A program made the translations under genes and the position numbers. The notes beneath the pieces were generated by a model. The model saw nothing but the letters and a program-made list of their open reading frames with translations. It did no database searches and was not told where the DNA came from. From Verrucomicrobiaceae bacterium (GTDB lineage Bacteria; Verrucomicrobiota; Verrucomicrobiia; Verrucomicrobiales; Verrucomicrobiaceae): a stretch of 64,000 nt of DNA. Every line of letters starts with the position of its first letter. The first letter of the stretch is position 1. The stretch is taken from assembly GCA_016795485.1 (NCBI GenBank), contig JAEUHM010000058.1, positions 62,001 through 126,000 of the forward strand, in the 5' to 3' direction. Of the stretch, positions 9,971 to 55,841 are shown piece after piece.

Positions 9971-10321
9971 GGGGGCGTTCTGGTTTCGACGGGTCGTCTT
10001 AGTTCGGGGCTGCATGCCGAGGATGGTTCGTTGGCCTCGTAAATCATCGGACCAAACAAACAACAGCAAACTCTAACGAGCTCGCTCTCGCGGCCTAAGC
10101 ACCGCGACGTCCTTTCAGTAATGTCTAGTAGCTGAAACGACGTCTTTACTAGACTGGTCAAAAGACCGCGCACGCGGGTCTGAGATGAGATGAACAGGGT
10201 GCTGGGTGAAGCGGATGCAGTCTTTAGCAGCCCCCCACCGAGACTAAACATAAGACTGAGCATGGAGACGCCACGGATGATGGTGATTCGGACAGGGGTT
10301 CAACTCCCCTCGCCTCCACCA
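9971..10321 (+). ncRNA. ssrA: tmRNA (transfer-messenger RNA)
   Basis: This is a complete one-piece tmRNA of 351 bases. The 5' end GGGGGCG (9971-9977) pairs with CGCCTCC (10311-10317) to form the acceptor stem with one G-U pair, followed by A and an encoded CCA (10319-10321). The conserved tmRNA opening TTCTGGTTTCGACGGG and the T arm ACAGGGGTTCAACTCCCCT are present. The internal reading frame encodes the tag ANSNELALAA and ends in TAA. The RNA rescues stalled ribosomes with SmpB and marks the unfinished protein for proteolysis. It is followed by its own intrinsic terminator and lies in a 500-base gap between protein genes. Confidence 0.97.
10066..10098 (+). other. tmRNA tag-peptide reading frame (ANSNELALAA)
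   Basis: Codons GCA AAC TCT AAC GAG CTC GCT CTC GCG GCC TAA lie downstream of the first pseudoknot region, where the resume codon is expected. The tag ends in LALAA, like other bacterial proteolysis tags, which end in A-L-A-A or A-A. Confidence 0.9.
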
Positions 10322-12381: not shown

Positions 12382-14154
12382 TCAGAGAGCCGCGGCTTCC
12401 TGTCTTGATCGGTGACGGTGAATCAGTGTCTCTCCCCATGCAGTGAGGTTGCGGCCTTTCGGGGTACGCTGTACGCAGCCGATTTCCATCAGGTAGGGCT
12501 CAACTTCCAGCATGATTTCGTCTGCTGAGACGGGGAGCAGTTGCTGTAGGGCTGGAAGGCCACGCGGTCCAGTTTCAAGGGCCTGGAGGTAGAGATAATC
12601 CAGTTGATTCAGCCCAAGCTCGTCCACGCGCCACAGTCGAGGTGCAAGGGAGTGAACCTCCGTAGTGGAGAGCAGTCCAGTTCGTGGTGTGATGGATTTT
12701 CGCTCCGCGATGTCCCTGGCGTAGTCGAGAGCACGCCCAGGCACAAGCTTGGCCATTCTGGCAATTGCACTCGGCACATCGGAGGCAACTTGGACTTGGT
12801 TGTTTTTGAAATAGCGCTCCACAAGGGTGGAGACGTCACTCTCGGTGCATGATTCGAGCTCCAAGCATTGAATGCGATTCAGAAACGGGTCGGGCAGTTG
12901 AGTGAGAGAGTGGGCCATGAACACCAGCGTAACTTGAGGGAGCGCAAGTGCTGCATCTGTGGACAAAAGGCATGGATTGGCTTCGTCCAGCAGCGAAAGA
13001 AACTCCGTGGCACTGCGCTTCCAGTGCTGAGGATGGTCCACCGCCAAAACGAAGGGTGAGTCCAGTTCCTGGAAGACATCACGCCTGATGGCATTCATCA
13101 AATCATCTGGCTTGCGGACAAATGCCCCACTGATTTCTACCAATGGGACTTTGAGACCACGGGCAATGCGTGAAGCCAGTTCCGACTTTCCACAACTCGT
13201 GCCGCCGAGAATGAGAAGGGGTTTTCCGAGTCTACCGGAAGGAAGCGCGCGAGTGAGGTTTATCTTACTCTTGAGTCTGCGGATAATCGAAGGATTGCCC
13301 ACGAAGCCACTGAAGGCCGACTCGACTCCAGGCTCAAATTGAGAAGCTTGCTCGTTCTGACGAGGGACGAGTAACTGAAGGATGCCCTCAGTTTGGCTGT
13401 CCGCTTTTTGGAGCTCCATGTTAAGCAGCAACTGCATGATAGCAGACTCCAGGTTGTGTTTGTCCGCTAACAGGAACTGAACCACTTGGCCATTCGCGGC
13501 ATTGGCACCTTTGATGTGTAAACATGGGTCTGCATTGCCTCGAACACGTAGTTCTAGCGGCCCACGGCGGAGCGAAAGCACGAGTTCCTGCTCTGAACTA
13601 GGCAGAACCTGGACTGACTCTGTGCTTGGAAGGCAGACATCTGCGGCAAACTGAATCCAACGCTTGGCGCACTCCACCAGTGCGTCTGCTAGCTCAAGAG
13701 AATCGGGGTCTGTGGTCAACTCCCTCTGCTGGAGCCAGTCGAGGAGACGCGCCGCAAAGAAGTCAGACCACAACAGCTTGAATCGGTGATCCGTGTTGTC
13801 CGACTTGGAGGCAGCGACCCACGATTCAGCGCCTTCTCGGCGGCAAAAACGGTGTGCTTCACCGAGTAAGTCTTGGACGAGCGCCTGAGTGCGTTTTGGC
13901 AGTGGATTGTCGCCTAATTGCAAAGGTGACACGTGGTTGGCAAGTCGTTCCCTCCATCGAGGGATCTGTGCCTCGATTACCTCCATAGCCTTGCCCACTG
14001 AGATGGTCATTGGTTCAGTGGGTTCTGCCTCGCCTAGAGCACATTGGCGCGCCATGTATTCAAACAGCACATCGTGAACGAGCGGTACCAACGCGGACCT
14101 ATCCTCGCAGGTGATCCTGCATTTCAGTTCGATGATTTCAATCCACGGAGTCAT
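12382..14154 (-). CDS. AAA+ ATPase with RuvB-like C-terminal winged helix; second gene of an ATPase pair
   Basis: About 590 residues. The first 300 have no recognisable domain. A P-loop ATPase follows, with Walker A GGTSCGKS near residue 320 and Walker B-like FVLAVDHP, where the usual second acidic residue is replaced by His-Pro. FLNRIQCLELES corresponds to the sensor/arginine-finger region. The last 75 residues closely resemble the DNA-binding winged helix of RuvB: RVDELGLNQLDYLYLQALE, then EPYLMEIGCVQRTPKGRNLT. The start at 14154 is chosen because it overlaps the upstream stop by 17 bases; 14181 is also possible. It could be a DNA-associated motor or switch working with the product of 14138-16261. 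It is not the housekeeping RuvB, being far too long and lacking the RuvB N-terminal motifs. Confidence 0.75.
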   Translation of the reverse strand: MTPWIEIIELKCRITCEDRSALVPLVHDVLFEYMARQCALGEAEPTEPMTISVGKAMEVIEAQIPRWRERLANHVSPLQLGDNPLPKRTQALVQDLLGEAHRFCRREGAESWVAASKSDNTDHRFKLLWSDFFAARLLDWLQQRELTTDPDSLELADALVECAKRWIQFAADVCLPSTESVQVLPSSEQELVLSLRRGPLELRVRGNADPCLHIKGANAANGQVVQFLLADKHNLESAIMQLLLNMELQKADSQTEGILQLLVPRQNEQASQFEPGVESAFSGFVGNPSIIRRLKSKINLTRALPSGRLGKPLLILGGTSCGKSELASRIARGLKVPLVEISGAFVRKPDDLMNAIRRDVFQELDSPFVLAVDHPQHWKRSATEFLSLLDEANPCLLSTDAALALPQVTLVFMAHSLTQLPDPFLNRIQCLELESCTESDVSTLVERYFKNNQVQVASDVPSAIARMAKLVPGRALDYARDIAERKSITPRTGLLSTTEVHSLAPRLWRVDELGLNQLDYLYLQALETGPRGLPALQQLLPVSADEIMLEVEPYLMEIGCVQRTPKGRNLTAWGETLIHRHRSRQEAAAL

Positions 14155-16261
14155 GCCAGAGAACGATTTGTGGACCATCACCCGTCAACACAGGGTCTAG
14201 GGGGTGCATGATCACGTGGTTGGACAAGGCAGAGGTTCTCAGCGCGTGACGGAGGGTTTCAATCGAACATCCACAGCCAATCTCCTGGAGCCGCTTCTGA
14301 AGCCGGTGAATCTCGATCCAACGCTCACTGGAGAGAATGACTTTTAGCGCTTCTCCCGCCTTCTCACTTAACGCATCTGCTGTTTCTAAGCCACGCTTGA
14401 ATCCATTTGAGCCAAGTCGGTGTGATTTGACGGTTGGGACAGGTGGTCGTGGGTTCTCAGGCTGGTCGCCACCAGCGAGATTTCCTTTCAGTGCCGCCTT
14501 GAATGCCGACCATGTTTTGGTGGAGGTCAGTCGCGAATTGGTTTTCAGGCACTGCAGCATTCCGTCGCTCGTTGCGGCTGGAGTGGTGAGAAGCTGATTG
14601 TGATTTCCTTCTCGGATTGAAGCGAGCAGCGAGCCCATACCTGCTAGCGTTGCGAGTTCACCGGATGGCACCTGTAGGTAGTGGTTTTTGGCAACAAATG
14701 CTTCAAAGTGGTTTTGAGATACTTGTCCCAAAGGACCGATGGAGACACCTCGTAGCATCAGTGTATTTCCGCCCTCACGCTGCAAGTGCTCCAGAAGAGT
14801 TAGCAACGGTCTGCGGGTGACGTCCGATACGATGACTCTAGCGGTCCCGCCGCAAGTGTCGATGAGCATGTCCGCCACTTCGCCCTCATGCCCTTCTGAT
14901 TGCAACGGGCCAGAAGAGATCTCGATGGGTTCCTCGCTCAGAAGTGAAACCAGTTCGCGGAAGCGATCACACAAGTCCATCGGACCTAGGTAAGCAGATT
15001 CCAACCGTGCATTGTCGATGGCTTCTTGGAGGAGGGCATCCATCTTTTCATCCAGAGACACGCGTTGGAGGGGTTCATCTGGAAAAAGCGCCGCAATGTA
15101 TCGCTCTGAGCAGGCGGCTAAGAGGTGGCGCGCATACACCGCACCACCTCCTGTCAGTTGCTTCAGATCATGATCGCTAAGTGGAAACGTTGCGGTTTCA
15201 ATGCCATCCGCTTCACGTTGGCGTTGTAGTGTTGGAGCGGCTAGCCGCCGCCGGACGAGGATGTCCTTGTCGCTTGTAACAATTGGGGAGACATCAATGA
15301 CCTGAAGCCTACTCAACTCAGGTCGATCAGGATCCGGAAGTCCAATACGCCCTCTAAGTGCCTGGCTCAACCCACTCTCCCAGAACTGAAAACGCTCTCC
15401 AATGAGGCTGATGAACACACTCCAACCCGAGCTTTGGTCGATAAACGCGAAGAGAAGTCGTTGAAACTCATTCAACGCCTCCGATGACGTGACAAGGTCC
15501 AGTTGATCCAGCACCAACACAAAAGGCAATCCTGCCGCTGCAGCGAGCTTACCCAAAAGATGAATCACTGTGCCATGAAGCTCCTTCACGAGTGGCTCTG
15601 GCTCCCCCAAGAAACGAAGATCCGCGTCAGTGAGATACGTTGTGCCTGCCATCCATTGAGCGGCAAGGTTCTCCTTGTCGTCCCGCAACACATTGAGCAG
15701 CGTGCGTAGAATGGACCTTGGAACCATTGGATGCTCTGACTCGAGCATCAACATGGCACCATGCAGAATATCCTTCCTCTCTTCCCCTGGCACGGCTAGC
15801 CATGCATCGTGCATCTCCTCAAACGTGAGGTGTTGCTCGATGACAGGACGAAGCAAAACATAAGCAAGCAGGCGCAACTGCGTGAAGGGAGCCTCGGAGC
15901 CGTCCTTTAGTCGGACTTTGTGGCGAAGACTCGATACGATCTTACCGAGAAGGAAGGCTTCAAGGGCATCGGCATGCAGCGGGGGATTGGCAGCATAAGC
16001 GTAAAAGATGGACTCACCCAACTCACGGCGGATTCGCGCAAAAAGATGAGACTTTCCAGAGCCGCCCATCCCGCGAACGAACCGCACTTGCGAGCGCCTA
16101 CTGGCACCTACCAGCTCCACGCACTGTCGGAGCGAAGCATAAGCCGCCGCATTGATCTCCGGCACATCAAGCCAAGCCCTACGACCCCACATCTCCGCCT
16201 CGCCAACGCTGAGGTCGACAAAGGGATTCAGAGGAAGGTAGGTTTGCAGGTGAGGCTGCAT
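14138..16261 (-). CDS. Large P-loop ATPase, first gene of an ATPase pair
   Basis: The protein has 707 residues. Walker A is GMGGSGKS at residues 64-71 and Walker B is LPFVLVLDQLDLV near 245-257, an AAA/STAND-like arrangement. The motif WGRRAW before the P-loop resembles the N-terminal loop of AAA_16-type regulators. The remaining 400 residues include an acidic mixed region and no recognisable catalytic domain. The last 100 look like a winged-helix segment (EIHRLQKRLQEIGCGCSIETLRHAL). The downstream gene overlaps its 3' end, so the two proteins are probably made in fixed ratio and form a complex. Function is unknown; DNA repair, plasmid/phage control or ATP-dependent regulation are open options. 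Confidence 0.75.
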   Translation of the reverse strand: MQPHLQTYLPLNPFVDLSVGEAEMWGRRAWLDVPEINAAAYASLRQCVELVGASRRSQVRFVRGMGGSGKSHLFARIRRELGESIFYAYAANPPLHADALEAFLLGKIVSSLRHKVRLKDGSEAPFTQLRLLAYVLLRPVIEQHLTFEEMHDAWLAVPGEERKDILHGAMLMLESEHPMVPRSILRTLLNVLRDDKENLAAQWMAGTTYLTDADLRFLGEPEPLVKELHGTVIHLLGKLAAAAGLPFVLVLDQLDLVTSSEALNEFQRLLFAFIDQSSGWSVFISLIGERFQFWESGLSQALRGRIGLPDPDRPELSRLQVIDVSPIVTSDKDILVRRRLAAPTLQRQREADGIETATFPLSDHDLKQLTGGGAVYARHLLAACSERYIAALFPDEPLQRVSLDEKMDALLQEAIDNARLESAYLGPMDLCDRFRELVSLLSEEPIEISSGPLQSEGHEGEVADMLIDTCGGTARVIVSDVTRRPLLTLLEHLQREGGNTLMLRGVSIGPLGQVSQNHFEAFVAKNHYLQVPSGELATLAGMGSLLASIREGNHNQLLTTPAATSDGMLQCLKTNSRLTSTKTWSAFKAALKGNLAGGDQPENPRPPVPTVKSHRLGSNGFKRGLETADALSEKAGEALKVILSSERWIEIHRLQKRLQEIGCGCSIETLRHALRTSALSNHVIMHPLDPVLTGDGPQIVLWHDSVD

Positions 16262-16782: not shown

Positions 16783-18015
16783 ATGCTTGCTGCTTCAGAA
16801 CATTGCCAAACTCTCGGAACTACCCAGTTCTGTCCTCCGCCCGCTGAGGGCATGGGTGAGTGTGGCGGTGTGGTTTTGGCGTCCGAGGATGCTTGGGGAG
16901 TGATGTTTGGCAGCTTTGCGGGGTATCAGCTCTTGAAGGTAATCGCCCGGGGCGGAATGGGTATTGTTTATCATGCGCGGGAGATGGAGACGGGTGAGGA
17001 GGTGGCGCTTAAGGTGCTGCCAGGTGGGCAGCTTTTGACCCGGGAAGCTCGATGGAGGTTCGCTGCTGAGGCTCGGACAATGGCCTTGCTGCGGCACCCA
17101 GGCATTTTGCCGGTTTACGGCAGGGGTGAAGTCAACGGAACTCCCTATTTTAGCATGAAGCTGGCAAATGGGGGTTCACTCGCGGAACGGAAGTCGAGGT
17201 ATGCTGGGGAATGGCAACAGATTGCCGAATTGATGGCTCAGATTGCCGATGTCGTGCAGTTCGCTCATGACAGCGGGGTCGTTCATCGGGATTTGAAGCC
17301 TTCGAACATCGTTTTTGATGAGGATGACCACCCGTATGTGTGCGATTTCGGGATCGCCAAGAGGCTAAATGAAAGGGGTCAGTTGACCGGCACGTGCACG
17401 CAGCTGGGTACACCGAGTTACATGTCGCCTGAACTGGTACGCATCAGTGGCCAGGGCCCAAGCGCGGCGAGTGATGTGTGGTCGCTAGGGGTGATCTTAT
17501 ACGAGTTGCTCGCAGGTAAGAGACCGTTTGTTGGGGACAGTCCCGCGCAGATCATGCGTCACGTGGAAGAAGATTTACCGCCTCCGCTTCGACAAGTGCC
17601 TCGTGCCTTGGCGATCATTGCCACCACGGCCTTGTCGAAGCGGCCTGCGGACAGATATGCTAGCGCTGCATCAATGGCGGCAGATCTACGACGCTGGCTT
17701 AGCGCTAAGCCGATCTGTGCGAGAGCCCCGAAGCTGACTCAGATCGCATGGCCGTGGCTCAGGCAGCATGGTATGGCTGCCACGTTTCTGATGCTTGTGA
17801 CGAGCATTTGTTTGAGCGGGTGGGGTATTGTTAGTCGTGTCAATGCCAAGTGGAATCAAGTCGCAGGCCTGCAAAGGGAGAAAAGTGACGCACTAGTTCG
17901 TCACGAGCGACCAACACCGTCGCCAAACCCGAAACGCAGGGTGCCGCGAGAGGTGACTCACGCCAAACACAAGCCGCATGGCCCAATCACTTCAGGCAAT
18001 CCCGAGACACGATGA
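16783..18015 (+). CDS. Membrane-anchored Ser/Thr protein kinase (Hanks type), first gene of the CHAT/secretion locus
   Basis: The protein has 410 residues. The kinase domain runs from about residue 47 to 310. It has the glycine loop ARGGMGIVY, the ATP-binding Lys in VALKVL, the catalytic loop HRDLKPSN, DFG in VCDFGIAK, and the activation-segment end GTPSYMSPE. All catalytic residues are present. One membrane segment (AATFLMLVTSICLSGWGIV) leaves only a short basic tail of about 70 residues outside, so there is no obvious sensor domain. Its stop overlaps the start of the sigma-like gene by ATGA. Kinase/ECF pairs of this kind are frequent in Planctomycetes and Verrucomicrobia, where phosphorylation is thought to switch the sigma factor. 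Control of the following genes is inferred from order. Confidence 0.92.
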   Translation: MLAASEHCQTLGTTQFCPPPAEGMGECGGVVLASEDAWGVMFGSFAGYQLLKVIARGGMGIVYHAREMETGEEVALKVLPGGQLLTREARWRFAAEARTMALLRHPGILPVYGRGEVNGTPYFSMKLANGGSLAERKSRYAGEWQQIAELMAQIADVVQFAHDSGVVHRDLKPSNIVFDEDDHPYVCDFGIAKRLNERGQLTGTCTQLGTPSYMSPELVRISGQGPSAASDVWSLGVILYELLAGKRPFVGDSPAQIMRHVEEDLPPPLRQVPRALAIIATTALSKRPADRYASAASMAADLRRWLSAKPICARAPKLTQIAWPWLRQHGMAATFLMLVTSICLSGWGIVSRVNAKWNQVAGLQREKSDALVRHERPTPSPNPKRRVPREVTHAKHKPHGPITSGNPETR

Positions 18016-19154
18016 AATGCTGCCCCACGATGGTTGAGATGCATGAACAAGCCGGTGCCTACCTAAAGAGGATTTGGGTTAGTGGTCGTTCGGAAGCACG
18101 CCGTGTTGATTCTAACTTGCCTTTTCTGGGATCATCAGGAGCTTTGGAACGGATCGAGCCGAATCTCTCACGTCCGATGTCTGCCCATCTCCCTACAGAA
18201 AAGTGGTCGCCTAACTGGGCAGAGTTGTGGCGCTACGGAGCTTGTTGGGCTGGGCGGCCAATTGGGGGCGTGCATTTGCCGGGAGAAGCGAGATCGGAGG
18301 TGATGAGGCAGGTAATGGAGCAGTTTATGACTGCTTATGAAGACTTGCCTGGGGAGTTGCAATGCAGGGCATTCATTCAAAGTCATGCGGTGAGCCTTGC
18401 TCTGGAACTAACACGGAAGCGCAGGCTGGACACGGGGAACCCTGGGTTGTGGCACGATTCTGATCATCGGCCTACCACGCCGCTCGTTGATCTTTCTAGA
18501 TTGCAGAACCTGGATGAAGACGGCACGGCAAAGGGCGAAAGTTGGAGTTTCTTGCATGAGCAATTGAAGCCAAGAGCAGTCGGATTACTCGGGTCAGAAG
18601 GCGTTCCGGCGGCCGATGCAGAAGATCTCTATCAAGAGTCGTTTGCTGGTCTCCTCCAGGTGCGGCGCAATGGCACGACGGTGATCCATGATCTTCACGT
18701 CTATGAGCAGTTGCCCCCGCTTTTTTTGACGATCGTCCGGAGGAAGTTGGCCAAATACATCCGGCACAGGCATGCTGCCAAGCGCGCGGTGACAGTAACC
18801 GAGAGTCTGGATGCCGTGGATGATTTTAACTCGGTGGCAGTAGAGCGGCGGTCATTTGACGTTTGGGCTGCAGGTGAAGCGGACGTGTTGAGCGGGCTGA
18901 CATTTGCTAGACTTGCGGAGGAATGCGCGGGTGTGCTGAGTGCGCTGCAGCAGCGCATTTTGACGATTCTCTACATCGAGGAGAGCGCCAACTACATGGA
19001 GGTGGCCTCATCAAGTTGGTTTGGGGTAGCGGCGGGTCTGAAGCCTGGCGCGTCTGAAGCGACTTGCCGCCGAGCCCTGGATCGAGTGCATGACGAGGCG
19101 TTGGATGCGCTTGCTCGTGGACTGGGACTTAACCGAGCCACTGGAGGCTCTTAG
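18012..19154 (+). CDS. ECF-like RNA polymerase sigma factor with N-terminal extension
   Basis: The protein has 380 residues, about twice the size of a typical ECF factor. The first 185 residues are unassigned. Residues about 195-260 match sigma region 2 (ADAEDLYQESFAGLLQV, then FLTIVRRKLAKYIRHRHAAKR). Residues about 310-370 match region 4 (LSALQQRILTILYIEESANYMEVA, then ATCRRALDRVHDEALDAL). It should direct RNA polymerase to a specific promoter set. Translation is coupled to the kinase through the ATGA overlap, which suggests that phosphorylation rather than a classic anti-sigma factor controls it. The N-terminal extension could be the regulatory target. The sigma call rests on motif pattern and is moderately secure. 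Confidence 0.72.
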   Translation: MKCCPTMVEMHEQAGAYLKRIWVSGRSEARRVDSNLPFLGSSGALERIEPNLSRPMSAHLPTEKWSPNWAELWRYGACWAGRPIGGVHLPGEARSEVMRQVMEQFMTAYEDLPGELQCRAFIQSHAVSLALELTRKRRLDTGNPGLWHDSDHRPTTPLVDLSRLQNLDEDGTAKGESWSFLHEQLKPRAVGLLGSEGVPAADAEDLYQESFAGLLQVRRNGTTVIHDLHVYEQLPPLFLTIVRRKLAKYIRHRHAAKRAVTVTESLDAVDDFNSVAVERRSFDVWAAGEADVLSGLTFARLAEECAGVLSALQQRILTILYIEESANYMEVASSSWFGVAAGLKPGASEATCRRALDRVHDEALDALARGLGLNRATGGS

Positions 19155-19211
19155 CTTTTCTTCACTTTTTTGCAATTTCTGAGTTTCGTTTGCCACTTCC
19201 TATGAAACCCC

Positions 19212-19793
19212 ATGAGTGATTCAACTTCATTGCCAAAACGCCCAGACTCACACGAGAGGCTTATCGCCTTGATGCAGACTGCTGCACCACCAATTGCTGA
19301 CGAGGAGACTCCAGCACTGCCGGACGAAATATTGCGCCGTTTGCAAGAGCAGTATGGCAACTCGGCAGGTCAACGAAGACCTTCTGGGCTGTGGACGCGG
19401 TTTAGGAATGGCATCAATGCGAGTCATCTTGCTTTGGCCGCCTGCATCTTGCTTCTGGGGCTTGTCGTTAGCGTTTTCTTGCGGGAAACGGATACTCCCG
19501 AGATAAGATTCCGAGGGCATGATGAACAATTGCCTAACGTCCCAGCGTTTTGGCTGGACACCTCGAATGCCAATCCACCGATCAAGGGCCTCGGCTTGCC
19601 AAAGTTTACTCAGGTTACTTCTGCTGCTCAGATACCAGTGGCTGGCACCAACGTGGTCTTTGACCCGGTACAAGGAGAGATACGCCTTTTGCGTGATGGG
19701 AAACCGGTTGCAGCGGTTACCGTGGAAGAAGCCGGTGATCCAGAGTCGTGGAGCACGGCTCACCGCCAGTTGATGAAGTTGATGAGGCCATAA
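19212..19793 (+). CDS. Single-pass membrane protein of unknown function (possible anti-sigma-like regulator)
   Basis: The protein has 193 residues. About 75 cytoplasmic residues come first, then one hydrophobic segment (LALAACILLLGLVVSVFL), then about 95 residues outside the membrane ending in a small beta-rich part (VVFDPVQGEIRLLRDGKPVAAVTV). The topology and its place immediately after a sigma factor fit an anti-sigma factor. There is no zinc-binding HxxxCxxC motif, so this is only a suggestion from position. It starts 57 bases after the sigma-like gene and ends just before the TpsB gene. Confidence 0.7.
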   Translation: MSDSTSLPKRPDSHERLIALMQTAAPPIADEETPALPDEILRRLQEQYGNSAGQRRPSGLWTRFRNGINASHLALAACILLLGLVVSVFLRETDTPEIRFRGHDEQLPNVPAFWLDTSNANPPIKGLGLPKFTQVTSAAQIPVAGTNVVFDPVQGEIRLLRDGKPVAAVTVEEAGDPESWSTAHRQLMKLMRP

Positions 19794-19819
19794 ATCACGC
19801 ACTATTTGTCCAGATCCCG

Positions 19820-21559
19820 ATGCCTGCTATCAAGATTCACCCGCCAATAACCAACGCGCCGCATCGCTCGAGGCGGCGGATGGTGAAGCGAGTGTCTCAG
19901 AGCTGCCTCCCGAAGTTCGTGCTGGCAGTGCTTGGGATCTGGACTCAATCAACGGTGATTACAGTGTTGGGGGCTGAGTCGCCATCTGCAGTGACAGTTA
20001 TCCATGTCATCAATGCAGACTCAAGCGAGGTCGCTCAGCTAGAGGGAGGTGTAGTCATCGGAGCAAAGATTCCGGGTGCGCGAAGGCTGGAGCGTGAACT
20101 TTCACGATACCTCGGACAGCGAGCAGACGAGACGTTGCTTGGGTTGTTGGCGGATGTGGTCGTGGAACACCTTAGACGAGAGAGTTGGCCGGTGAGCCTT
20201 GTGACGGTGTGGGATGATGATGGTGCGCTAATCCGGGGTAGCGTGATTTTGCAAGTGCAGCAAGGTAGGGTAGGGGACCTGGCGATTGTTGGCGGTAGCG
20301 CACGTCGGCAGAGGACAGTGGCCAAGCGCTTGGCAAGTCTAGTCGACCAACCTTTGGATGGCATGACTCTTCAGAGACGGCTGGATGCACTGGCCTTTTC
20401 GCCGTGGTTGGCGTGTGCGCCCGAGGCTGTGCCAGGGAACTCGCTCGACACTGCCAACTTGGTGTTAACACTTGAGGAGCAGAGTCCCGTGCACGCGTTT
20501 GCTAGCTATGAGAACAACGGAGTCTCCCCACTGGGGCAGAATCGTCACAGTTTGGGCGTTCAGTGGCTGAATGGTTTTGGTTTGGGCCATGATTTGACGG
20601 TTCTGGCTACAGTCTCTGATGACCCTGAAGTTTTCTCCATGATTGCTGGCAGTTGGAGAATACCATTGCCTTGGCGACACGAGTTGCGATTCAGCGGTTA
20701 CTATGCAGAGACGCTGTCCACAAGCGAGGTGCTATCGATTCCGCTGGATGTAGACGGGACTACTTGGGAGACGGGAGTACGCTACATGGTGCCATGGCGC
20801 ATCAATCAGGAGTGGCGCAGTGAATGGTCAGTCGGGTTTGATTACAAACAGTTCGACACTGCATTTACCTTTGGAAGCACCGCAGCAGCTGTGGACTCCA
20901 CTGGAGTAGGCACGGTCAATTTGAGCACGATTTGGTACTATGATTCGGCTCGAGACCACCTGAGGTTTGGACTGGACTTCGTTCACGGTGAGCCTGGATG
21001 GGCGGCGGGACAAACGGAGGAGCAATTTAATCAGCTTGTCGCAGGGGCGAGTCCCCGATTTAACATAGTTCGTGGAGTAGCATCGTATCAGCACGATTTC
21101 AGCAATGACATGCAAGCTGCATGGAGAGTGGGTGCCCAATGGAGCGATGGGCCGTTGCTGCCAAGCGAGGAACTCACGTTAGCTTCAATCAATGTGGTCA
21201 GGGGATATCCAGAGCGCAGTTATCGAGCTAGCCGGGGAGCTTGGGCATCTGTTGAAGCGCGCGGACCCGAGTGGGAACTATGGAAGGCGCGGATCAAGTT
21301 CCGGCCTCTGGCCTTCTTTGATGTGGGTTACACGGCGGATGAAAGCCTCGGATGTGGTTGTAGTAACTCTGAAAGCGCAGAAAGCGAAGATCCTGAAAAA
21401 CCGATGGAAGGTGAAGACTTTGACGACTTCATCGCCAGTGCGGGCATCGGTGTTCGTCTTGAGCTAACCAAATATGTTCACCTCCGATGTGACTTAGCTT
21501 TTCCCCTCATCCACCGCAACGAACCAAGAGTTCAACTCGCGGCAGTAGTCAGGTTCTGA
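19820..21559 (+). CDS. TpsB-type outer-membrane transporter (ShlB/FhaC/HecB family)
   Basis: About 579 residues. After an export signal come a polypeptide-transport-associated (POTRA) region, which includes GSVILQVQQGRVGDLAIVGG and TLEEQSPVHAFASYENNG, and a C-terminal beta-barrel of alternating strands. The conserved barrel motif NVVRGYPERSYRASRGAW is the VRGY/LRGY signature of Omp85-TpsB proteins. It would secrete a TpsA exoprotein across the outer membrane. The likely cargo is the beta-helix protein at 23347-24639. ATG 19820 gives a long leader; ATG 19880, preceded by AGGCGG, gives a compact signal peptide and may be the true start. A long acidic loop rich in Cys, Glu and Ser lies near the end of the barrel. 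Confidence 0.87.
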   Translation: MPAIKIHPPITNAPHRSRRRMVKRVSQSCLPKFVLAVLGIWTQSTVITVLGAESPSAVTVIHVINADSSEVAQLEGGVVIGAKIPGARRLERELSRYLGQRADETLLGLLADVVVEHLRRESWPVSLVTVWDDDGALIRGSVILQVQQGRVGDLAIVGGSARRQRTVAKRLASLVDQPLDGMTLQRRLDALAFSPWLACAPEAVPGNSLDTANLVLTLEEQSPVHAFASYENNGVSPLGQNRHSLGVQWLNGFGLGHDLTVLATVSDDPEVFSMIAGSWRIPLPWRHELRFSGYYAETLSTSEVLSIPLDVDGTTWETGVRYMVPWRINQEWRSEWSVGFDYKQFDTAFTFGSTAAAVDSTGVGTVNLSTIWYYDSARDHLRFGLDFVHGEPGWAAGQTEEQFNQLVAGASPRFNIVRGVASYQHDFSNDMQAAWRVGAQWSDGPLLPSEELTLASINVVRGYPERSYRASRGAWASVEARGPEWELWKARIKFRPLAFFDVGYTADESLGCGCSNSESAESEDPEKPMEGEDFDDFIASAGIGVRLELTKYVHLRCDLAFPLIHRNEPRVQLAAVVRF

Positions 21560-21610
21560 GCACCCCATTTCCTTCCACACCTAATCCCGATAACCCAATC
21601 CGCCTCATCT

Positions 21611-23341
21611 ATGAAACGAGCAATAAGTTACTTCATCTCTAGTGCCGCCATTCTTGCTCTGCTATGGTTTGCCTCGTGTACTCCTTCGAACCATAAGCCA
21701 CCATTCTTCGTAAAACTGCGGACTTACACCATTACGGTTCCCCCGTGGAGGAAGGATGTGAAGCGACTGGATTTCGCAAAGGCGCTGGCCGCGTGGTATG
21801 CCCAGAATCCACAGTTTAAGTCCACAATGAATGGGGGTCTGCCGTTCAAACCGGAAAGATCCTTTTATATGCCAGCCTCTGGTGGTCATCAGTATACTGT
21901 TCGGATGACTGACGAGACCGCTGATGCGTTGCGCCAAACGTTTCGGGTGAATGGTTTTGGCGTTATCGTGCACCCCTCCCGTGTTTATCGTCCAACAGTG
22001 GCTGCTGCCAGTATCGCGGCAGCTCAAGTTACCGACACAAGCGCGCCATTGTCCACAACTTGGGCTGCGATGACGGTTGTTCCATCTGCCGTTACAAGTG
22101 CGAATGTGCGAGTCCCAAGGCTATATGTCGTAGACTCTGGCGTTCAACCCATAGTGCCAGGTGTGACCAGTGGAACGCATCAGTGGCATCCTGAGTTTGC
22201 GGGATTTGAGAATGAGAATGACCGCGTTGAACTTTTGCAGGGTCGGCTTGCAAACGTTTCATTGAGCAAGTCATGGCAACATCCGCTTGATGCGGATTAT
22301 CCGGTCGACCCGACGGCTGCCGCGCCTTGGAATCTTCAGGCCGACAGTATGTTGGTTTGGGCGAATCAGCCCAAGCCTTTGCCGCTGGCTTCATATTCGA
22401 GCATTTATCTTGATCCACAACGTGACCCAAGGAAGCACGGGACCCTGTTGACGTCATGTGCTGTGGGCGAGAACGTAGGCGTGCTTGGTCGTGTTGTGGG
22501 TGCAAAGGCATTGGTAGAGTCTATCAGAACCTATCCCAACGGATCCACTGCCAAAGCATCAACGGCAGCGATGACCGAAGGAGTCTACGAGGCCTTAGAC
22601 GCACACCTCGCTGCTCCAAGTGGCACGAAGTCAGTCCTGATGTTCGCTAGCCGCACAGAAGATGGTTTTGATCCGAGCCTTGAGGTGGCTCTTTGGTGGG
22701 CTTGGAAAAAGGGAATGGTCTGTGTGGTGTCAGCTGGTAATGAGCCTGATCCTTACGCCTCCGGCTTGTATGAGCCCAATCCGCAGTGGTTTCCTGCGGC
22801 GAATCAGGCACAGCCTAACTCCCCATCACGGTTTGATTGGAATGTTGGAAAGACGCCTGAAGGTCGTGCCTACTGGGAGTCGTTGGGATACAAGGATCCT
22901 TATGACGACAGTATTACAGTGCCGGATGACAACTACTTGATCATGGTTGGCGCGCATAGCGCAGTAAAGTCCTCTTCAACACCGCCCTCGACTGGAGACG
23001 ATTGGGCACCCACGGCTAGTCGTGGTCCTGGTGTTGATGTTTTAGCGCCTGCACGTGACGTTCCTTCTGCAAATACCACAACACGGGGCCTGCTGTATGC
23101 CGATGGTGCAAGTCTGGCCACTGGGTTTGTTGCTGGCGTTGCTCTCGCATATCTTTCTTCTGTGCCAGAAGCCCAAACAACGCCCATGGCTTTTCGCAGT
23201 TGGCTGCTACCCGAACACACTCCCGGTAGTAGTGACCCCATTCGGCTATCGGTTAACGCGAATGCTCGTCAAGGCCACAGCTTGCCCAGCATTTATGGCA
23301 ACAAGATGCCAGTGCTCCAATTAAAGGACCTCCCAGATTGA
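21611..23341 (+). CDS. Subtilisin-like serine protease (S8), lipoprotein
   Basis: The protein has 576 residues. A lipobox LWFASC near residue 23 marks it as a lipoprotein. A prodomain-like stretch of about 130 residues precedes the S8 catalytic domain. The triad is Asp175 in LYVVDSG, His276 in RKHGTLLTSC and Ser501 in DGASLATGFVAG; an oxyanion-type Asn is likely in VVSAGNEPD. The enzyme should be anchored at the outer membrane or in the periplasm. It lies between the transporter and the TpsA-like gene, five bases upstream of the latter, so processing of the exported protein is a reasonable hypothesis. SphB1 of Bordetella is a known surface subtilisin that matures the TpsA protein FHA. Confidence 0.9.
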   Translation: MKRAISYFISSAAILALLWFASCTPSNHKPPFFVKLRTYTITVPPWRKDVKRLDFAKALAAWYAQNPQFKSTMNGGLPFKPERSFYMPASGGHQYTVRMTDETADALRQTFRVNGFGVIVHPSRVYRPTVAAASIAAAQVTDTSAPLSTTWAAMTVVPSAVTSANVRVPRLYVVDSGVQPIVPGVTSGTHQWHPEFAGFENENDRVELLQGRLANVSLSKSWQHPLDADYPVDPTAAAPWNLQADSMLVWANQPKPLPLASYSSIYLDPQRDPRKHGTLLTSCAVGENVGVLGRVVGAKALVESIRTYPNGSTAKASTAAMTEGVYEALDAHLAAPSGTKSVLMFASRTEDGFDPSLEVALWWAWKKGMVCVVSAGNEPDPYASGLYEPNPQWFPAANQAQPNSPSRFDWNVGKTPEGRAYWESLGYKDPYDDSITVPDDNYLIMVGAHSAVKSSSTPPSTGDDWAPTASRGPGVDVLAPARDVPSANTTTRGLLYADGASLATGFVAGVALAYLSSVPEAQTTPMAFRSWLLPEHTPGSSDPIRLSVNANARQGHSLPSIYGNKMPVLQLKDLPD

Positions 23342-23346
23342 GCAAC

Positions 23347-24639
23347 ATGAAGGCGATCTTGGTAGTTGGCACGATCATTGGTTTGTGTGCAGCTAGTGCA
23401 TGGGCGGGGCAAGGCCCCGCTGGGACGGCAGGTGTATGCCAGCAGGTCATCGGGCCTGTTGGCGTGGACGGCAAGCCCATCGGCTTCACCTGCACCGACG
23501 TTGGGGGAAATGCACTGTTGGTATGGAATGCCTCACGGCTCACTGGCAACATCGAGGTCCAGGGTCAGTTCAAAACTGTCAATTTCTTTGGTGGAAGCTT
23601 TAGCATAGACGGAACATTTACTTCCAACGGCCCGATTGCATTCATCGGCGGACAAATTGCTGTCAGTGGTGAGATAAGTGGAACTGACGTGCTCATCGCT
23701 GGAACTGCCACCACAGAGGACGGGATCAAAAGTAGCTTGCTGGGCCCAGGTGGACGGATTCTTGCAGATTCCACAGCGAGGGTCGTCATAAACAAAGGAG
23801 CAACGGTGACTGCGAAAGGTGGTAATGTCGTGATCGTTGGCGCGTCCTTTCTCAATGAGGGAAAAGTTTCCGCAAACTCCGGGACGGTAGCAGTTAAGAC
23901 TGGAAGCAGGCTTGATGTCGGTTGGCGAGACGCGAACTGGCTTGATGGAACTCACAACCCTAACCGTGTCGGCCAGTTCCGTGCTATCAACAACACTGGG
24001 ACGATACAAGGAAAAGACGTGCTGCTTGAGGCACGGAGGGATGTTGGAGATTTCGATTCAATCGTCAATGGCAGTGGGGGGAAGATTATAGCTTCGACGT
24101 CTGTTACATTTGTCACGGGAGAACCCGGCAAGCTGCAGCCCAATGGTGAATACATTAAGCGTTCGTTTGGCATCAACAATGCAACTGGGAAGCTGTTTAG
24201 TCCCAAAGTCGTCATCAGTCCATACTACCAAGCTGGAGTCGGCGGCGCTTCACAGGATCGGGAGTTCGCCACTGGTAGTGAAGCCGACCGTTCTTGGCTC
24301 ATGCATGCTGTTGGCGGGGTAAGCGGTCCCACTCAAGACAATACCCCGGCTGGTGCTACTTCGGTTATCAACGACACGATTACGCCGACGAGTCGGGTGG
24401 CAGCTACCACGGCGATCGTCATTCCGCAGATCGCACCTTCGGTGTCTCACATGAACTCGACGACCAATAATCGGACTGCGATTGCGGTGGCGAGCAATAG
24501 TCAAGATACAGTGCGAGGTGGTTCTGGGACTAATACGACTGTCGCCAGTAAGAAGCCTCGTGTGAAGGCAAAGCCAGTGCTTGTAAGAGGAGCATTTTTC
24601 AGCTCAAAGATCAGCGCCAAGATCACGGCGAATCGATGA
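23347..24639 (+). CDS. Small TpsA-like secreted beta-helix protein (two-partner secretion cargo)
   Basis: The protein has 430 residues. A signal peptide (MKAILVVGTIIGLCAASAWA) opens it. Repeated short strands rich in Gly, Asn, Val and Ile follow (FFGGSFSIDGTF, GPIAFIGGQIAVSG, GGNVVIVGASFLNEGKVSA, NNTGTIQGKDVLLEA). This is the look of the haemagglutinin-type right-handed beta-helix, including the NEGxI/NxGxI pattern of the TPS domain. It is much smaller than classic TpsA adhesins and ends in a Thr/Ser/Asn-rich, then basic, tail (KKPRVKAKPVL) instead of a toxin domain. Position after TpsB and S8 supports secretion by the local TpsB. Its stop overlaps the CHAT start by ATGA. The cargo role is inferred. 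Confidence 0.78.
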   Translation: MKAILVVGTIIGLCAASAWAGQGPAGTAGVCQQVIGPVGVDGKPIGFTCTDVGGNALLVWNASRLTGNIEVQGQFKTVNFFGGSFSIDGTFTSNGPIAFIGGQIAVSGEISGTDVLIAGTATTEDGIKSSLLGPGGRILADSTARVVINKGATVTAKGGNVVIVGASFLNEGKVSANSGTVAVKTGSRLDVGWRDANWLDGTHNPNRVGQFRAINNTGTIQGKDVLLEARRDVGDFDSIVNGSGGKIIASTSVTFVTGEPGKLQPNGEYIKRSFGINNATGKLFSPKVVISPYYQAGVGGASQDREFATGSEADRSWLMHAVGGVSGPTQDNTPAGATSVINDTITPTSRVAATTAIVIPQIAPSVSHMNSTTNNRTAIAVASNSQDTVRGGSGTNTTVASKKPRVKAKPVLVRGAFFSSKISAKITANR

Positions 24640-27359
24640 GCAGGAGGGTGCTCATTCTTTGGGCCTGCGTGTGCCTTTTTGCCGAGCTCGGCGCACTTTG
24701 CTCTGAACTCGATCAGCGGAAAAGACAAGTCAGGGAGGCCGAGGAGAAACTACAATCGCTACCTCGCCAGTCAGAAGAGTGGCGGGCCGCGCACGGAGAG
24801 TGGTTGAGGTTTAGGGTAGCTCTGATGGACGAAATGTTCCGTGCAGGTGACGTAGAGCAGGCTGCGTCTGAGTTGGCCGACATTGAGAACCAGCTGATTC
24901 CCGGTGAAGACGCTACTTCTCGGGTGGCAGTCTATGAGGCAAGGGCGAATGCCGAGATCCGCTGGGGTGGTGGTTGGCCAAAGGCTAGGAGCTTTCTTGA
25001 TCAGGCGGAGAGGGCAGCCGCATCGGACGCAGGCGATGATCTGCCGCTGCTAGTCTTGCTTGCGAGGGTGGAAGCCGCCAACGCTTGTCAGCAGTATGAG
25101 GAAGCTCTGGCGACACTGAAGCGATTGTTTGCTGCGGTAGCTACTTCCAGATTGCGTGTGGAACGTGCTCAAGTTTTGAAAACTCAAGCCAGAGCTAGGG
25201 AAGCCCTCACATTTCATTACATGGGAAAGCTGGCAGCATCAAAAGCATCGAGTCTCCAGGGCATTGCAGAGCTTGCCGAATATTCTTTGGTGGATGCCAA
25301 AGCGTTGGAAGCGCGGTTGAGGTCCAATCTTGCAGCTACCTGTCTTGCGCTAGATGAGAATGCGGAAGCTGTGCAACATGCAGAAGCTTCGATCGCCGCA
25401 TTGTCTCCGACTTTGCTGGAACGAGCTGAGCGGGAAGCATTAGCCAGTGCTTATCTAACGCGAGCAACGGCGAGGTGCAAGATAAGCAAGGATCTCGCAG
25501 CCAAGAGCATCCAGACAGATTTAGCTGCATCTCGGCGACTGTATGAACAATGCTATGGAGAGAGATCCGCGAGCCTTGTTCCGCTCTTGACCACCATTTC
25601 ATGGATTGCTCTTGAGGTGAAGGACATCGATGGGGCTGAAGTAGGTCTTACTCGCGCCATGAGGATCGCAGAGGCGAATCGAATGCCGCCCTATTTCCGT
25701 ATTCCTCTGCTAGAGAACTTGTGTCGCTTGAGGCTACTTCAAAGACGAGCCGAGGACGCCCGGCAAATCGCCGCGAATATGCGGGATATCTGGAAGGCGC
25801 GCTTTCCTATCGTTATGGCGGCCGGCACGGAGGCTGATCGCATCAACACGCTGCGGGAAGTGTCCTGGCTAGATTGTGCAATGGCAGCGAGATCGCCACA
25901 GTCTGCTTCTGAGGATGATTCTGGCGCTGTCGATGCGATTTTGGCAACCTATGGTGCTGTGTTTGACTCATTGCTCAGAGACGCAGGTCTGATCGGCAGG
26001 CTCCCTCAAGACCAAAAGCAGCGGTATTTTGAAAATAGAGCACGGCTTGCAGCGCTAACGCTCAAGGTTCAAAACGACAATGGCTCGAATGCCGAGAATG
26101 AGGTTTCAAATCTCCGGCGGATACTTCGAGACATGGAGCTTTTGCATGGTTTTGACGCTCAAACGGAGGAGCTGCGTGCGCGGTTGCAGAGCGCTATGCC
26201 AAAGCACTCCGCCCTGGTCGCGTACTCGCCCTTCCGGAGCATGGATGGCAAAGCGATGGAGAGAGTGGCCGTGGCTGTGGTGACCTCGCAGGTTGCCACC
26301 GTGGTGCAACTCCCGGCTTCACGAGACAGTATCCGCAGCGAGGGAGATGCGCTACTACGAGCCATTGCTAACAAGGAGCCGTCTGCAGAGGTTCAAGCGA
26401 TCATCGCTGGGCTTAGGGATGCTCTGTGGTCGCCGATAACCGGTTTCTTGGCCGGTGTAGAGAGAGTCTATTTGTGTCCTGATGCTTCCATGCACCGGGT
26501 TCCGAGTGTGGTTTGGGATCATCCGGATGTGAGCTTTCTCACGAGCCCTCAAGCCATTCTGCGGAAAGCTCCCGGTCACGTTGAGATCAATCACGCAACA
26601 GCGGCATGGATCCTGGTGAATGCTAGCCAGGGTGTGGTCCATTTCGAGCCTGACCTCCCGTTCCCCTATGACGTGGTCAATCACCTTCCAGAGCATTCGA
26701 TGCCGGAACTTCCGGGTACGACGAAGGAGGTGGATGGGATTGAAGCAAGTCTCCCGGAGAGGTGGTTCAGGCTTCATTCTGACACTCCCACCGGTGCGCC
26801 TGAAGAGAGCGCGTTTATCGCCGCCCTAGTTGATCCGCCGGCCGTGATTCATTTTGCAGGGCATGCTGTGGCGCATGATCCAGGTGTTGAGTCCTCGAGT
26901 GCTCCATCTTCATGGTGGGAGGGTATTGATCAACCGCGTGCTCTGTGGTGCAGTAGCCTTATCTTTCCAAATCCTCAGCCTGCAATCCACGCTGAGGACC
27001 TCGGGACCGATAACTTTCTGTTCGCCGCAGAAGTCGCGGGATTGGACCTCACGGGAACTCAACTTGTGACGCTCTCTGCGTGTGACACGGGCGCGGGGAT
27101 CAGTCCCAAGAGCGAGGGCCACTACAGCCTAGCGCGCGCATCTCATACAGCGGGTGTGCGTGACGTTCTGAGCGCCACTGAGGCGATTCCAGACGGTCCG
27201 ACCGTGGATTTGATGGTGCTATTCTACGAACGACTCGCCAAGGGCGAGGACGCAGCGATAGCTTTGTGGCAAGAGCAGAGAAAACTCATCAAACCGGACA
27301 AGCCTGACACGGTCCGTGCGTTTGGATTCTTCCGCTTGACCCGAGCCTGGGTAAAATAA
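24636..27359 (+). CDS. Exported CHAT-domain caspase-like protease with helical repeat N-terminus
   Basis: The protein has 907 residues. An N-terminal hydrophobic leader (RVLILWACVCLFAELGALCS) suggests export. About 550 residues of alpha-helical repeats resembling TPRs follow. The C-terminal third is a CHAT domain: YLCPDASMHRVPSVVW, then IHFAGHA with catalytic His743, then TLSACDTG with catalytic Cys816, and the closing GVRDVLSATEAIPD and LMVLFYERLAKGEDAAIALW. Both catalytic residues are present. CHAT proteases are relatives of caspases and separase and usually act inside cells. Here the gene overlaps a TpsA-like gene and carries a leader, pointing to action in the periplasm or outside. The target is unknown. 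Confidence 0.9.
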   Translation: MSRRVLILWACVCLFAELGALCSELDQRKRQVREAEEKLQSLPRQSEEWRAAHGEWLRFRVALMDEMFRAGDVEQAASELADIENQLIPGEDATSRVAVYEARANAEIRWGGGWPKARSFLDQAERAAASDAGDDLPLLVLLARVEAANACQQYEEALATLKRLFAAVATSRLRVERAQVLKTQARAREALTFHYMGKLAASKASSLQGIAELAEYSLVDAKALEARLRSNLAATCLALDENAEAVQHAEASIAALSPTLLERAEREALASAYLTRATARCKISKDLAAKSIQTDLAASRRLYEQCYGERSASLVPLLTTISWIALEVKDIDGAEVGLTRAMRIAEANRMPPYFRIPLLENLCRLRLLQRRAEDARQIAANMRDIWKARFPIVMAAGTEADRINTLREVSWLDCAMAARSPQSASEDDSGAVDAILATYGAVFDSLLRDAGLIGRLPQDQKQRYFENRARLAALTLKVQNDNGSNAENEVSNLRRILRDMELLHGFDAQTEELRARLQSAMPKHSALVAYSPFRSMDGKAMERVAVAVVTSQVATVVQLPASRDSIRSEGDALLRAIANKEPSAEVQAIIAGLRDALWSPITGFLAGVERVYLCPDASMHRVPSVVWDHPDVSFLTSPQAILRKAPGHVEINHATAAWILVNASQGVVHFEPDLPFPYDVVNHLPEHSMPELPGTTKEVDGIEASLPERWFRLHSDTPTGAPEESAFIAALVDPPAVIHFAGHAVAHDPGVESSSAPSSWWEGIDQPRALWCSSLIFPNPQPAIHAEDLGTDNFLFAAEVAGLDLTGTQLVTLSACDTGAGISPKSEGHYSLARASHTAGVRDVLSATEAIPDGPTVDLMVLFYERLAKGEDAAIALWQEQRKLIKPDKPDTVRAFGFFRLTRAWVK

Positions 27360-45394: not shown

Positions 45395-45409
45395 TCCTCA
45401 CTTGCCAAC

Positions 45410-45895
45410 ATGAGCAGCCAACCTCCCCCTCTTCAGCACGCTCACACCGCCAGTCAGCCCGGCGGACTCTCCCCCTGGCTCGCCTTGGGCATCACGTTGG
45501 CCCCATTGTTCGTTAGCTTGGCCCTGCCCGCACTGACGCTCGATGATGGCACCGTTTGGTCCGGCGCTTATCTCTTTTGCATGGGCTGGTTAGGCGTATT
45601 CATCGGGCAGTATGGCTGGCTGGCAAACATCGCCTGGTTCCTCGCCATCTTTTGTCTGCTGCTCAGGTCCCGCATCGCCGTCATCGCGTTCTCCGTGCTC
45701 GCGCTGCTTCTCAGCCTTGCCAGCTTCACCCTCATCGGCACGGAGATACCCATGGACGAAGCGGCAGTGAAGAAAGCCACCCCCACCGCCTTCGGTCCCG
45801 CGCTCTACGTGTGGCTCTTGGCCCTCCTCACACCCGCCATCATCATCTTTTGGGTGAAGCCCCGCAACCAACGCACACCGCCCCCACTGCCATGA
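45410..45895 (+). CDS. Small integral membrane protein, unknown function
   Basis: The protein has 161 residues. About five hydrophobic segments are seen (LALGITLAPLFVSLALPAL, AYLFCMGWLGVFI, WLANIAWFLAIFCLLL, IAVIAFSVLALLLSLASFTLI and ALYVWLLALLTPAIIIFWV) with a proline-rich cytoplasmic N-terminus. No family motif is recognised. It starts 15 bases after the FG-GAP-like gene and its stop overlaps the LRR gene start by ATGA, so the three are probably co-transcribed. Confidence 0.75.
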   Translation: MSSQPPPLQHAHTASQPGGLSPWLALGITLAPLFVSLALPALTLDDGTVWSGAYLFCMGWLGVFIGQYGWLANIAWFLAIFCLLLRSRIAVIAFSVLALLLSLASFTLIGTEIPMDEAAVKKATPTAFGPALYVWLLALLTPAIIIFWVKPRNQRTPPPLP

Positions 45896-47115: not shown

Positions 47116-47125
47116 CATCCGCCCC

Positions 47126-47263
47126 ATGGCCCATACGCCCGGAAGATTCATCTACACCCGTGATCAAGGTCAAAACTGCAGTCTCCAGATAGGCGACTAC
47201 ACCCTAGATGACTTTGTCGCCACCTGGACCAGCAAAGACGACGATTGGTATTTCGACGCCTAA
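47126..47263 (+). CDS. Possible 45-residue small protein of unknown function
   Basis: ATG 47126 opens 45 codons up to TAA 47261-47263. The peptide is acidic at its end (SKDDDWYFDA) and contains a plausible fold-like stretch (RFIYTRDQGQNC). Its last codons lie in a 62-base repeat that recurs 840 bases downstream. It lies 11 bases after the LRR gene and could be its last small co-transcribed partner. There is no other evidence that it is translated. Confidence 0.35.
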   Translation: MAHTPGRFIYTRDQGQNCSLQIGDYTLDDFVATWTSKDDDWYFDA

Positions 47264-47308
47264 CACACGTCTGAGAATCGACAGCAGAATCAAGGCAACA
47301 GAATGTCC
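47247..47308 (+). repeat. Intergenic repeat, copy 1 of a diverged direct pair
   Basis: The 62 bases beginning GGTATTTCGACGCCTAACAC recur at 48089-48150 with roughly 85% identity by eye. The best-kept core is GAGAATCGACAGCAGAA. The copy includes the end of the small frame at 47126-47263. Confidence 0.7.
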
Positions 47309-47540
47309 TGATGAAGCGCCACGCCTGCCGCCTCAAAGAGACGGCCTACAATTTGCCGACATGGTGATTCGTAGCGATGGGTGTTGTAGCCTGGCTCTAT
47401 GAGCCAGGAGACGTAGGACATCATCCAAAGCCCAACTCACGGGCAGGAACTGGAACCATAAAGAAAGACTCGGTTAGCACACGGCACGGTCACTGACCCC
47501 CGCCGGGCGCCCACCCTCCAGCGTCATCGCCGCACCCTCA
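47264..47540 (+). other. Gap with no supported gene between small frame and 47541
   Basis: The stretch contains the remainder of repeat copy 1 and otherwise shows no supported gene, hairpin or promoter. A repeated-looking phrase at 47388-47410 (CCTGGCTCTATGAGCCAGGAG) forms a short palindrome, CTGGCTC-TAT-GAGCCAG, that could be a terminator stem, but it lacks a T-run. Confidence 0.4.
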
Positions 47541-55840: not shown

Positions 55841-55841
55841 G

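What the first reader, a model, noticed from the sequence alone, without database searches (positions are those of the whole stretch)
12382..16261. Uncharacterised ATPase pair with a RuvB-like DNA-binding tail
Two overlapping reverse genes encode large P-loop proteins. The second carries an AAA-like core with a degenerate Walker B and a C-terminal winged helix strikingly like RuvB, but 590 residues long. The first has a WGRR motif before Walker A. The operon lies against a cNMP-binding protein and a tRNA, positions where accessory modules often sit. A DNA-branch-recognition or defence/recombination role is possible.
Basis: partly seen in the sequence, partly recalled or inferred. Interest (0 to 1): 0.7.

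Follow-up and report, generated by a model that had tools for sequence, protein, structure and literature searches.

The report
RuvB-motor version of nuclease–ATPase pair
Two overlapping bacterial genes encode a relative of a predicted DNA-capturing, DNA-cutting defence machine in which the usual DNA pump (FtsK) has been replaced by a RuvB-like DNA motor, and in this bacterium both the cutting site and the motor's ATP-hydrolysis site look worn out.

Summary
Two real, overlapping reverse genes encode P2 (14138-16261, 707 aa, P-loop ATPase) and P1 (12382-14181, 599 aa). P1 is not just an ATPase with a RuvB tail. Residues 288-585 match the whole RuvB motor plus winged helix, without the RuvA-binding hairpin. 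The ~280 N-terminal residues are a degenerate PD-(D/E)XK nuclease domain, recognised through a relative (G071) with intact motifs. The pair recurs in two genomes of another genus and, with an upstream winged-helix-like gene, in a distant family. P1's nuclease domain and P2's ATPase are homologous to those of three-gene operons in which the nuclease is fused to FtsK (profile E 4e-13 for each); one genome carries ATPase, PD-(D/E)XK and FtsK in a single protein. These match the 'Orc/CDC6-HerA/FtsK capture systems' predicted by Rakesh et al. 2024 (PMC10853773), which does not mention RuvB. Best reading: a motor-swapped, nuclease-dead, partly domesticated variant in which P2 targets DNA and P1 sits on or moves along it. 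Shared ancestry and motor swap are well supported. Defence function is untested, and slow evolution, no defence-island context and loss of catalysis argue against active restriction here. The cNMP gene and tRNA next door are incidental.

The parts
12382..14181 (-). P1: degenerate PD-(D/E)XK domain fused to a RuvB-like AAA+ motor and winged helix, 599 aa
13342..14130 (-). P1 N-terminal domain (residues ~18-280), homologous to the PD-(D/E)XK domain of PD-(D/E)XK-FtsK proteins
   Evidence: hhalign P1 profile against PDDEXK-FtsK profile: probability 98.2, E 3.8e-13, score 71 against a maximum of 14 in 100 column shuffles; the FtsK-type profile finds the G071 P1 at 1.6e-12
13432..13593 (-). Remnant nuclease motifs: E197 and D218 kept; D-Y-K motif replaced by Q235-F-L; Q250 kept
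   Evidence: alignment with G071 (RGKLD...LLDYK...Q) and L094 (SGRPD...VVDYK...Q)
12637..13320 (-). RuvB-like AAA+ motor (residues 288-515), without the presensor-1 beta-hairpin
13183..13206 (-). P1 Walker A GGTSCGKS
13030..13050 (-). P1 degenerate Walker B VLAVDHP (Glu to His)
12433..12621 (-). P1 RuvB_C winged helix (residues 521-583), with the DNA-contact wing RTPKGR kept
   Evidence: PF05491 E 2.7e-13
14138..16261 (-). P2: NPF-type P-loop ATPase, 707 aa, with middle domain and predicted C-terminal winged helix
15092..16144 (-). P2 ATPase domain (residues ~40-390)
   Evidence: homologous to the ATPases of the FtsK-type operons, hhalign probability 97.9, E 3.7e-13, 351 columns
16049..16072 (-). 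P2 Walker A GMGGSGKS
15497..15520 (-). P2 Walker B VLVLDQLD (DQ conserved in the family)
14486..15064 (-). P2 middle domain (residues 400-592), possible inactive restriction-endonuclease-like fold
   Evidence: AF2 pLDDT mostly 65-91, alpha-beta order; fold matches weak and mixed; sequence comparison negative
14162..14344 (-). P2 C-terminal winged-helix-like segment
   Evidence: pattern shared with the FtsK-type ATPases, marginal hhalign score 13.7 against null maximum 12.5

Best explanation
P2 and P1 are two subunits of a DNA-handling machine built like the predicted Orc/CDC6-HerA/FtsK 'capture' systems, in which the nuclease-fused FtsK pump has been replaced by a RuvB-like AAA+ motor. Shown: shared ancestry of the nuclease-derived domain and of the ATPase with the FtsK-type operons, gene adjacency of P2 and P1, and sequence loss of catalytic residues in P1. 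Inferred: P2, an initiator-like ATPase with a probable C-terminal winged helix, recognises a DNA site or state and seats P1 on duplex DNA in place of RuvA. In the intact version (G071) P1 would reel DNA to its own nuclease domain and cut it. In this window's lineage the nuclease D-x-K motif and the motor's Walker B glutamate are gone, so P1 most likely acts as a DNA-bound, P2-controlled clamp or structural partner: a domesticated, non-cutting derivative.
For: Pair adjacent in the same order in the window, in two genomes of a second genus and in a distant family of the class. P1 N-terminus against PD-(D/E)XK-FtsK N-terminus: E 3.8e-13 over 217 columns, far above shuffles. FtsK-type profile recovers G071 P1 at 1.6e-12. 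P2 against FtsK-type ATPase: E 3.7e-13 over 351 columns. One protein fuses NPF-ATPase, PDDEXK_1 (PF12705 E 3.3e-14) and FtsK, a Rosetta-stone link. G071 has a winged-helix-like gene, ATPase and P1 in a row. P1s form one clade apart from 27 housekeeping RuvBs, support 100/100. P1s lack the RuvA-docking hairpin but keep most of the DNA-contact wing (function of these parts from PMC9477746 and PMC10071043). Strong purifying selection in the second genus: dN/dS 0.06 for both genes, 0.15 in the nuclease core. Architecture described in PMC10853773.
Against: The FtsK-type systems are themselves only predicted to be defensive. No winged-helix partner gene was found in the window's genome, though it is unlinked but present in the second genus. 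The middle domain of P2 could not be matched to the corresponding part of the FtsK-type ATPases by sequence. Within two genera the loci are stable and evolve almost as slowly as Der. No close relative of the window's own pair was available to test selection on it. The P1 model was too poor to use.
Confidence: 0.62

Rival explanations
1. The window pair is still an active anti-invader (anti-phage or anti-plasmid) system: P2 senses, P1 translocates and cuts or blocks DNA.
For: Ancestry in a predicted counter-invader architecture; intact nuclease motifs and intact Walker motifs in the distant homolog G071; patchy occurrence.
Against: In the window the D-x-K motif and the Walker B Glu are lost; in the second genus the metal-binding acids and Lys are conservatively replaced (E, E, R). 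No PADLOC hit above weak P-loop or Cas4 similarity. No defence island seen, slow evolution, stable loci.
Confidence: 0.18
2. A recombination or repair accessory: an alternative branch-migration or fork-remodelling motor using RuvB chemistry without RuvA.
For: Whole RuvB-like motor plus winged helix with most wing arginines kept; slow evolution; stable chromosomal positions within genera.
Against: The genome has its own RuvB of normal length (G000:C58); the RuvA-docking hairpin is missing; Walker B lost in the window; gene absent from most relatives (full-length P1 in 3 of 57 genomes).
Confidence: 0.12
3. The window copy of P1 is a decaying remnant and only P2 still functions, as in the Prosthecobacter-like genomes that keep the winged-helix gene and P2 but have no P1.
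For: P1 motifs degenerate; very long P1 branch; P1 absent from all P2-bearing Prosthecobacter-type loci and genomes examined, where P2 remains under purifying selection, dN/dS about 0.1.
Against: Open frame of 599 codons with normal codon-position GC; C-terminal motor segment and wing well conserved with the other pairs.
Confidence: 0.08

Closest known systems
Orc/CDC6-coupled HerA/FtsK capture systems (Rakesh, Aravind & Krishnan 2024, PMC10853773)
   Same: Homologous ATPase; homologous PD-(D/E)XK-derived domain fused to a DNA motor; winged-helix gene in G071 and in the Prosthecobacter-type loci; overlapping operon genes
   Different: Motor is RuvB-like, not HerA/FtsK; nuclease motifs and Walker B degenerate in the window; winged-helix gene not adjacent; the paper does not mention RuvB
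RuvB Holliday-junction motor
   Same: AAA+ motor and winged helix over ~300 residues, most wing arginines kept
   Different: ~285-residue nuclease-derived N-terminus; no presensor-1 hairpin; score 85 against a cut-off of 282; separate clade
SspFGH and DndFGH restriction modules
   Same: Three-gene logic of P-loop protein, further subunit and motor-bearing effector; the FtsK-type counterpart of P1 scores as SspH over its FtsK part
   Different: Neither P1 nor P2 matches Ssp or Dnd profiles; no FtsK domain
BREX BrxC/BrxD ATPases
   Same: Weak P-loop similarity of P2 (18.3 bits)
   Different: Below cut-off (22.2), confined to the Walker A region; no other BREX partners seen beside the pair

Membership tests
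Orc/CDC6-HerA/FtsK capture system | ATPase homologous to that of the FtsK-type operons | tested here: met
   hhalign probability 97.9, E 3.7e-13, 351 columns
Orc/CDC6-HerA/FtsK capture system | ATPase belongs to the Orc/CDC6 clade | tested here: inconclusive
   Only AAA_16, 32.9 against 32.6 bits; clade not resolved
Orc/CDC6-HerA/FtsK capture system | HerA/FtsK motor | tested here: not met
   P1 carries a RuvB-like motor; no PD-(D/E)XK-FtsK protein in the genome, only proteins matching the FtsK part alone
Orc/CDC6-HerA/FtsK capture system | Active REase | tested here: not met
   Family homology yes, but D-x-K motif lost in the window; intact in G071
Orc/CDC6-HerA/FtsK capture system | Inactive REase domain between ATPase core and C-terminal wHTH | tested here: inconclusive
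   Fairly confidently predicted alpha-beta domain at 400-592; fold matches weak and mixed; sequence comparison negative
Orc/CDC6-HerA/FtsK capture system | Winged-helix partner gene | tested here: inconclusive
   Adjacent in G071 and Prosthecobacter-type loci; unlinked in the second genus; not found in the window genome, but the family evolves fast
RuvB | Score above the equivalog cut-off | tested here: not met
   85.4 against 282 bits
RuvB | Presensor-1 beta-hairpin that binds RuvA domain III | tested here: not met
   Seven-residue deletion and loss of the RLDIIIDQGP segment in all four P1s; role of the hairpin from PMC9477746
RuvB | C-terminal winged helix with DNA-contact arginines | tested here: met
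   PF05491 E 2.7e-13; RTPKGR
PD-(D/E)XK nuclease superfamily | Family homology | tested here: met
   relative with PF12705 E 3.3e-14
PD-(D/E)XK nuclease superfamily | Catalytic D...(D/E)-x-K | tested here: not met
   Window: D218 kept, D-Y-K replaced by Q-F-L
SspFGH or DndFGH | Profile match of the subunits | tested here: not met
   No Ssp or Dnd profile among PADLOC matches to P1 or P2
BREX BrxC/BrxD | PF10923 at gathering score | tested here: not met
   18.3 against 22.2 bits, Walker A region only
Any defence system | Demonstrated protection against phage or plasmid | not testable with these tools
   Needs plaque and transformation assays

The most novel reading that the evidence does not exclude
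A so far undescribed branch of ATPase-guided DNA capture systems that uses a RuvA-independent RuvB-like ring instead of FtsK, active in some lineages and domesticated into a nuclease-dead chromosomal DNA-handling device in Verrucomicrobiaceae.
Probability: 0.45. Interest if true: 0.72.

Novelty: new variant of a known kind. Interest (0 to 1): 0.58.

Why it matters
RuvB is known as the Holliday-junction motor that works with RuvA. Here its motor has been recruited as an exchangeable pump in a nuclease machine, in the position FtsK holds in sister systems. That would show the motor of such systems is a swappable module and give a RuvA-free RuvB whose loading and DNA substrate can be tested. The graded series (intact in G071, conservatively altered in a second genus, catalytic residues lost in the window, P1 missing altogether in Prosthecobacter-type genomes) makes it possible to study how a restriction-like machine is turned into something else.

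Tried and rejected
P1 structure prediction with three sequences failed (mean pLDDT 49.7) and was not searched. P2 model: only 400-592 was fairly confident; Foldseek best E 0.18 (MspJI, not significant) and VIA-align Z about 6.6 to a restriction endonuclease, tied with unrelated carboxyltransferases, so not used as proof. Sequence comparison of the P2 middle domain with the FtsK-type ATPases gave nothing above shuffles. PHROGs: a clamp-loader profile at E 2e-7 on P1's AAA+ part, read as general AAA+ similarity. Plasmids and phages: no P2-type or FtsK-type ATPase on plasmids; listed plasmid and phage hits to P1 cover its RuvB part, apart from one unannotated phage record covering residues 182-587 that was not followed. 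The weak class-level hit G352 lies in an ORF that by eye is a cytochrome-like membrane protein, a chance match. tRNA-linked island idea: the pair lies on the 5' side of the tRNA, GC matches the neighbours, and the cNMP orthologs lie elsewhere without the pair. Literature searches for RuvB in defence or nuclease fusions found no description of this architecture in the open-access library; subscription papers and preprints were not covered.
Full report
What is there. P2 (14138-16261) lies upstream and overlaps P1 (12382-14181), which suggests translational coupling; in the second-genus genomes and in G071 the two genes also abut or overlap. Codon-position GC of both genes is like that of their neighbours.

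P1. Its C-terminal 300 residues match the whole RuvB protein, not just the tail: NCBIfam RuvB aligns at residues 288-585 with E 3e-24, but with 85 bits against a cut-off of 282 it is not RuvB. The own genome has a separate RuvB of normal length (G000:C58). Aligned with 27 RuvBs of related genomes, all four available P1s lack the presensor-1 beta-hairpin region (seven residues deleted, RLDIIIDQGP lost), which in RuvB binds RuvA domain III (PMC9477746). They keep most of the DNA-contact wing (RTPKGR in the window). They form one clade, support 100/100, with long branches. In the window, Walker A is kept, the Walker B Glu is His, and the presumed arginine finger is kept; in the second genus Walker B is DD and the arginine finger is lost; in G071 all are intact.

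P1 N-terminus. Nothing in Pfam matches the window's first 285 residues. The distant homolog G071 (L078:11510-13309) shows the signature E...RGKLD...LLDYK...Q of the Cas4/RecB-type PD-(D/E)XK family, and the PADLOC Cas4 model touches it weakly (E 0.008). Profile comparison with the N-terminus of PD-(D/E)XK-FtsK proteins gives probability 98.2, E 3.8e-13 over 217 columns, score 71 against a maximum of 14 in 100 column-shuffled controls (whole-protein comparison). A profile of the FtsK-type proteins finds the G071 P1 at 1.6e-12 in a genome search. In the window the D-Y-K motif reads Q-F-L, and in the second genus E-Y-R with E for the first Asp: nuclease activity is improbable in the window and doubtful in the second genus.

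P2. AAA_16 just above its cut-off. Profile comparison with the ATPases of FtsK-type operons: E 3.7e-13 over 351 columns, including the N-terminal NPF motif and the DQ Walker B. Residues 400-592 form a fairly confidently predicted alpha-beta domain that could be the inactive nuclease domain of the described systems, but neither fold search nor sequence comparison settles it. A C-terminal winged-helix-like segment is marginally similar to that of the FtsK-type ATPases.

The wider family. Starting from a weak P2 hit (G426) and SspH-profile hits, operons of winged-helix gene, NPF-ATPase and PD-(D/E)XK-FtsK were found in G426, G006 and G050; in G038 the ATPase is fused to an FtsK part. In family f12 the ATPase and FtsK are fused, and L126 carries ATPase, PDDEXK_1 (PF12705, E 3.3e-14) and FtsK in one chain. 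That fusion is the strongest reason to think P2 and P1 work together. These operons match the 'HerA/FtsK capture systems coupled to Orc/CDC6 ATPases' of Rakesh, Aravind and Krishnan (PMC10853773), predicted to intercept invasive DNA; I found no experimental test of that function. RuvB does not occur in that paper or in the 2026 follow-up PMC12839542.

Distribution and decay. RuvB-type pairs: the window, two genomes of a second genus (G009, G016; L054/L073) and G071. Prosthecobacter-type genomes (named through matching contig lengths) have the winged-helix gene next to P2, a proline-rich end in place of P2's C-terminal winged helix, and no P1 or FtsK-type partner in the genomes searched. In the second genus the winged-helix gene is on another contig. 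None was found in the window's genome. Selection is strong where it can be measured (dN/dS 0.06 for P1 and P2 in the second genus; nuclease core 0.15; Der 0.04).

Interpretation. The lineage of the machine and the motor swap are supported by sequence. The mechanism is inferred: P2 as the DNA-targeting or loading ATPase, P1 as a ring on duplex DNA, cutting in the intact version. For the window, loss of the nuclease and Walker B residues favours a non-cutting, possibly structural or regulatory role. The pair should not be filed as a member of the HerA/FtsK capture systems, because it lacks the HerA/FtsK motor and an active nuclease; it is a variant that shares their ATPase and nuclease domains.

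Limits. Only four P1 sequences were available, genome sampling of P1 was limited to relatives plus one indexed genome collection and two record collections, the P1 structure could not be modelled, and no experiment was possible.

Noticed in passing
window 16783-27359 +: Run of same-strand genes with a Ser/Thr kinase, an uncharacterised 380-aa protein that by eye resembles a sigma factor (no Pfam match), a ShlB/FhaC secretion protein (PF03865), a possible subtilisin-like protein (by eye) and a CHAT-domain protease (PF12770, E 4e-35); may be a secretion or conflict cassette.
   Followed up: partly
window 49963-53043 -: 1026-aa NACHT/AAA_16 STAND-like NTPase, with a 472-aa ORF upstream and a 311-aa ORF downstream on the same strand, both without Pfam match.
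   Followed up: no
window 44001-60000: GC rises to about 0.59-0.64 and GC skew swings from -0.29 to +0.38.
   Followed up: no
L119:7096-9405 (G000:C22), L120:7819-9984, L122:7647-10442, L123, L124: Single-gene relatives of the NPF-type ATPase (about 540-930 aa) occur in many genomes of the order, in G001 and G006 in the neighbourhood of an SMC-like and an FtsW-like gene (named by eye); function unknown.
   Followed up: partly
L126:7350-10922, L128:6051-9777, L129:6776-11075: In family f12 the capture system is condensed: a winged-helix gene next to a fused ATPase-FtsK protein (L128, L129), and in L126 ATPase, PD-(D/E)XK and FtsK in one 1190-aa chain.
   Followed up: partly
window 9971-10321 +: tmRNA with tag peptide ANSNELALAA.
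   Followed up: no
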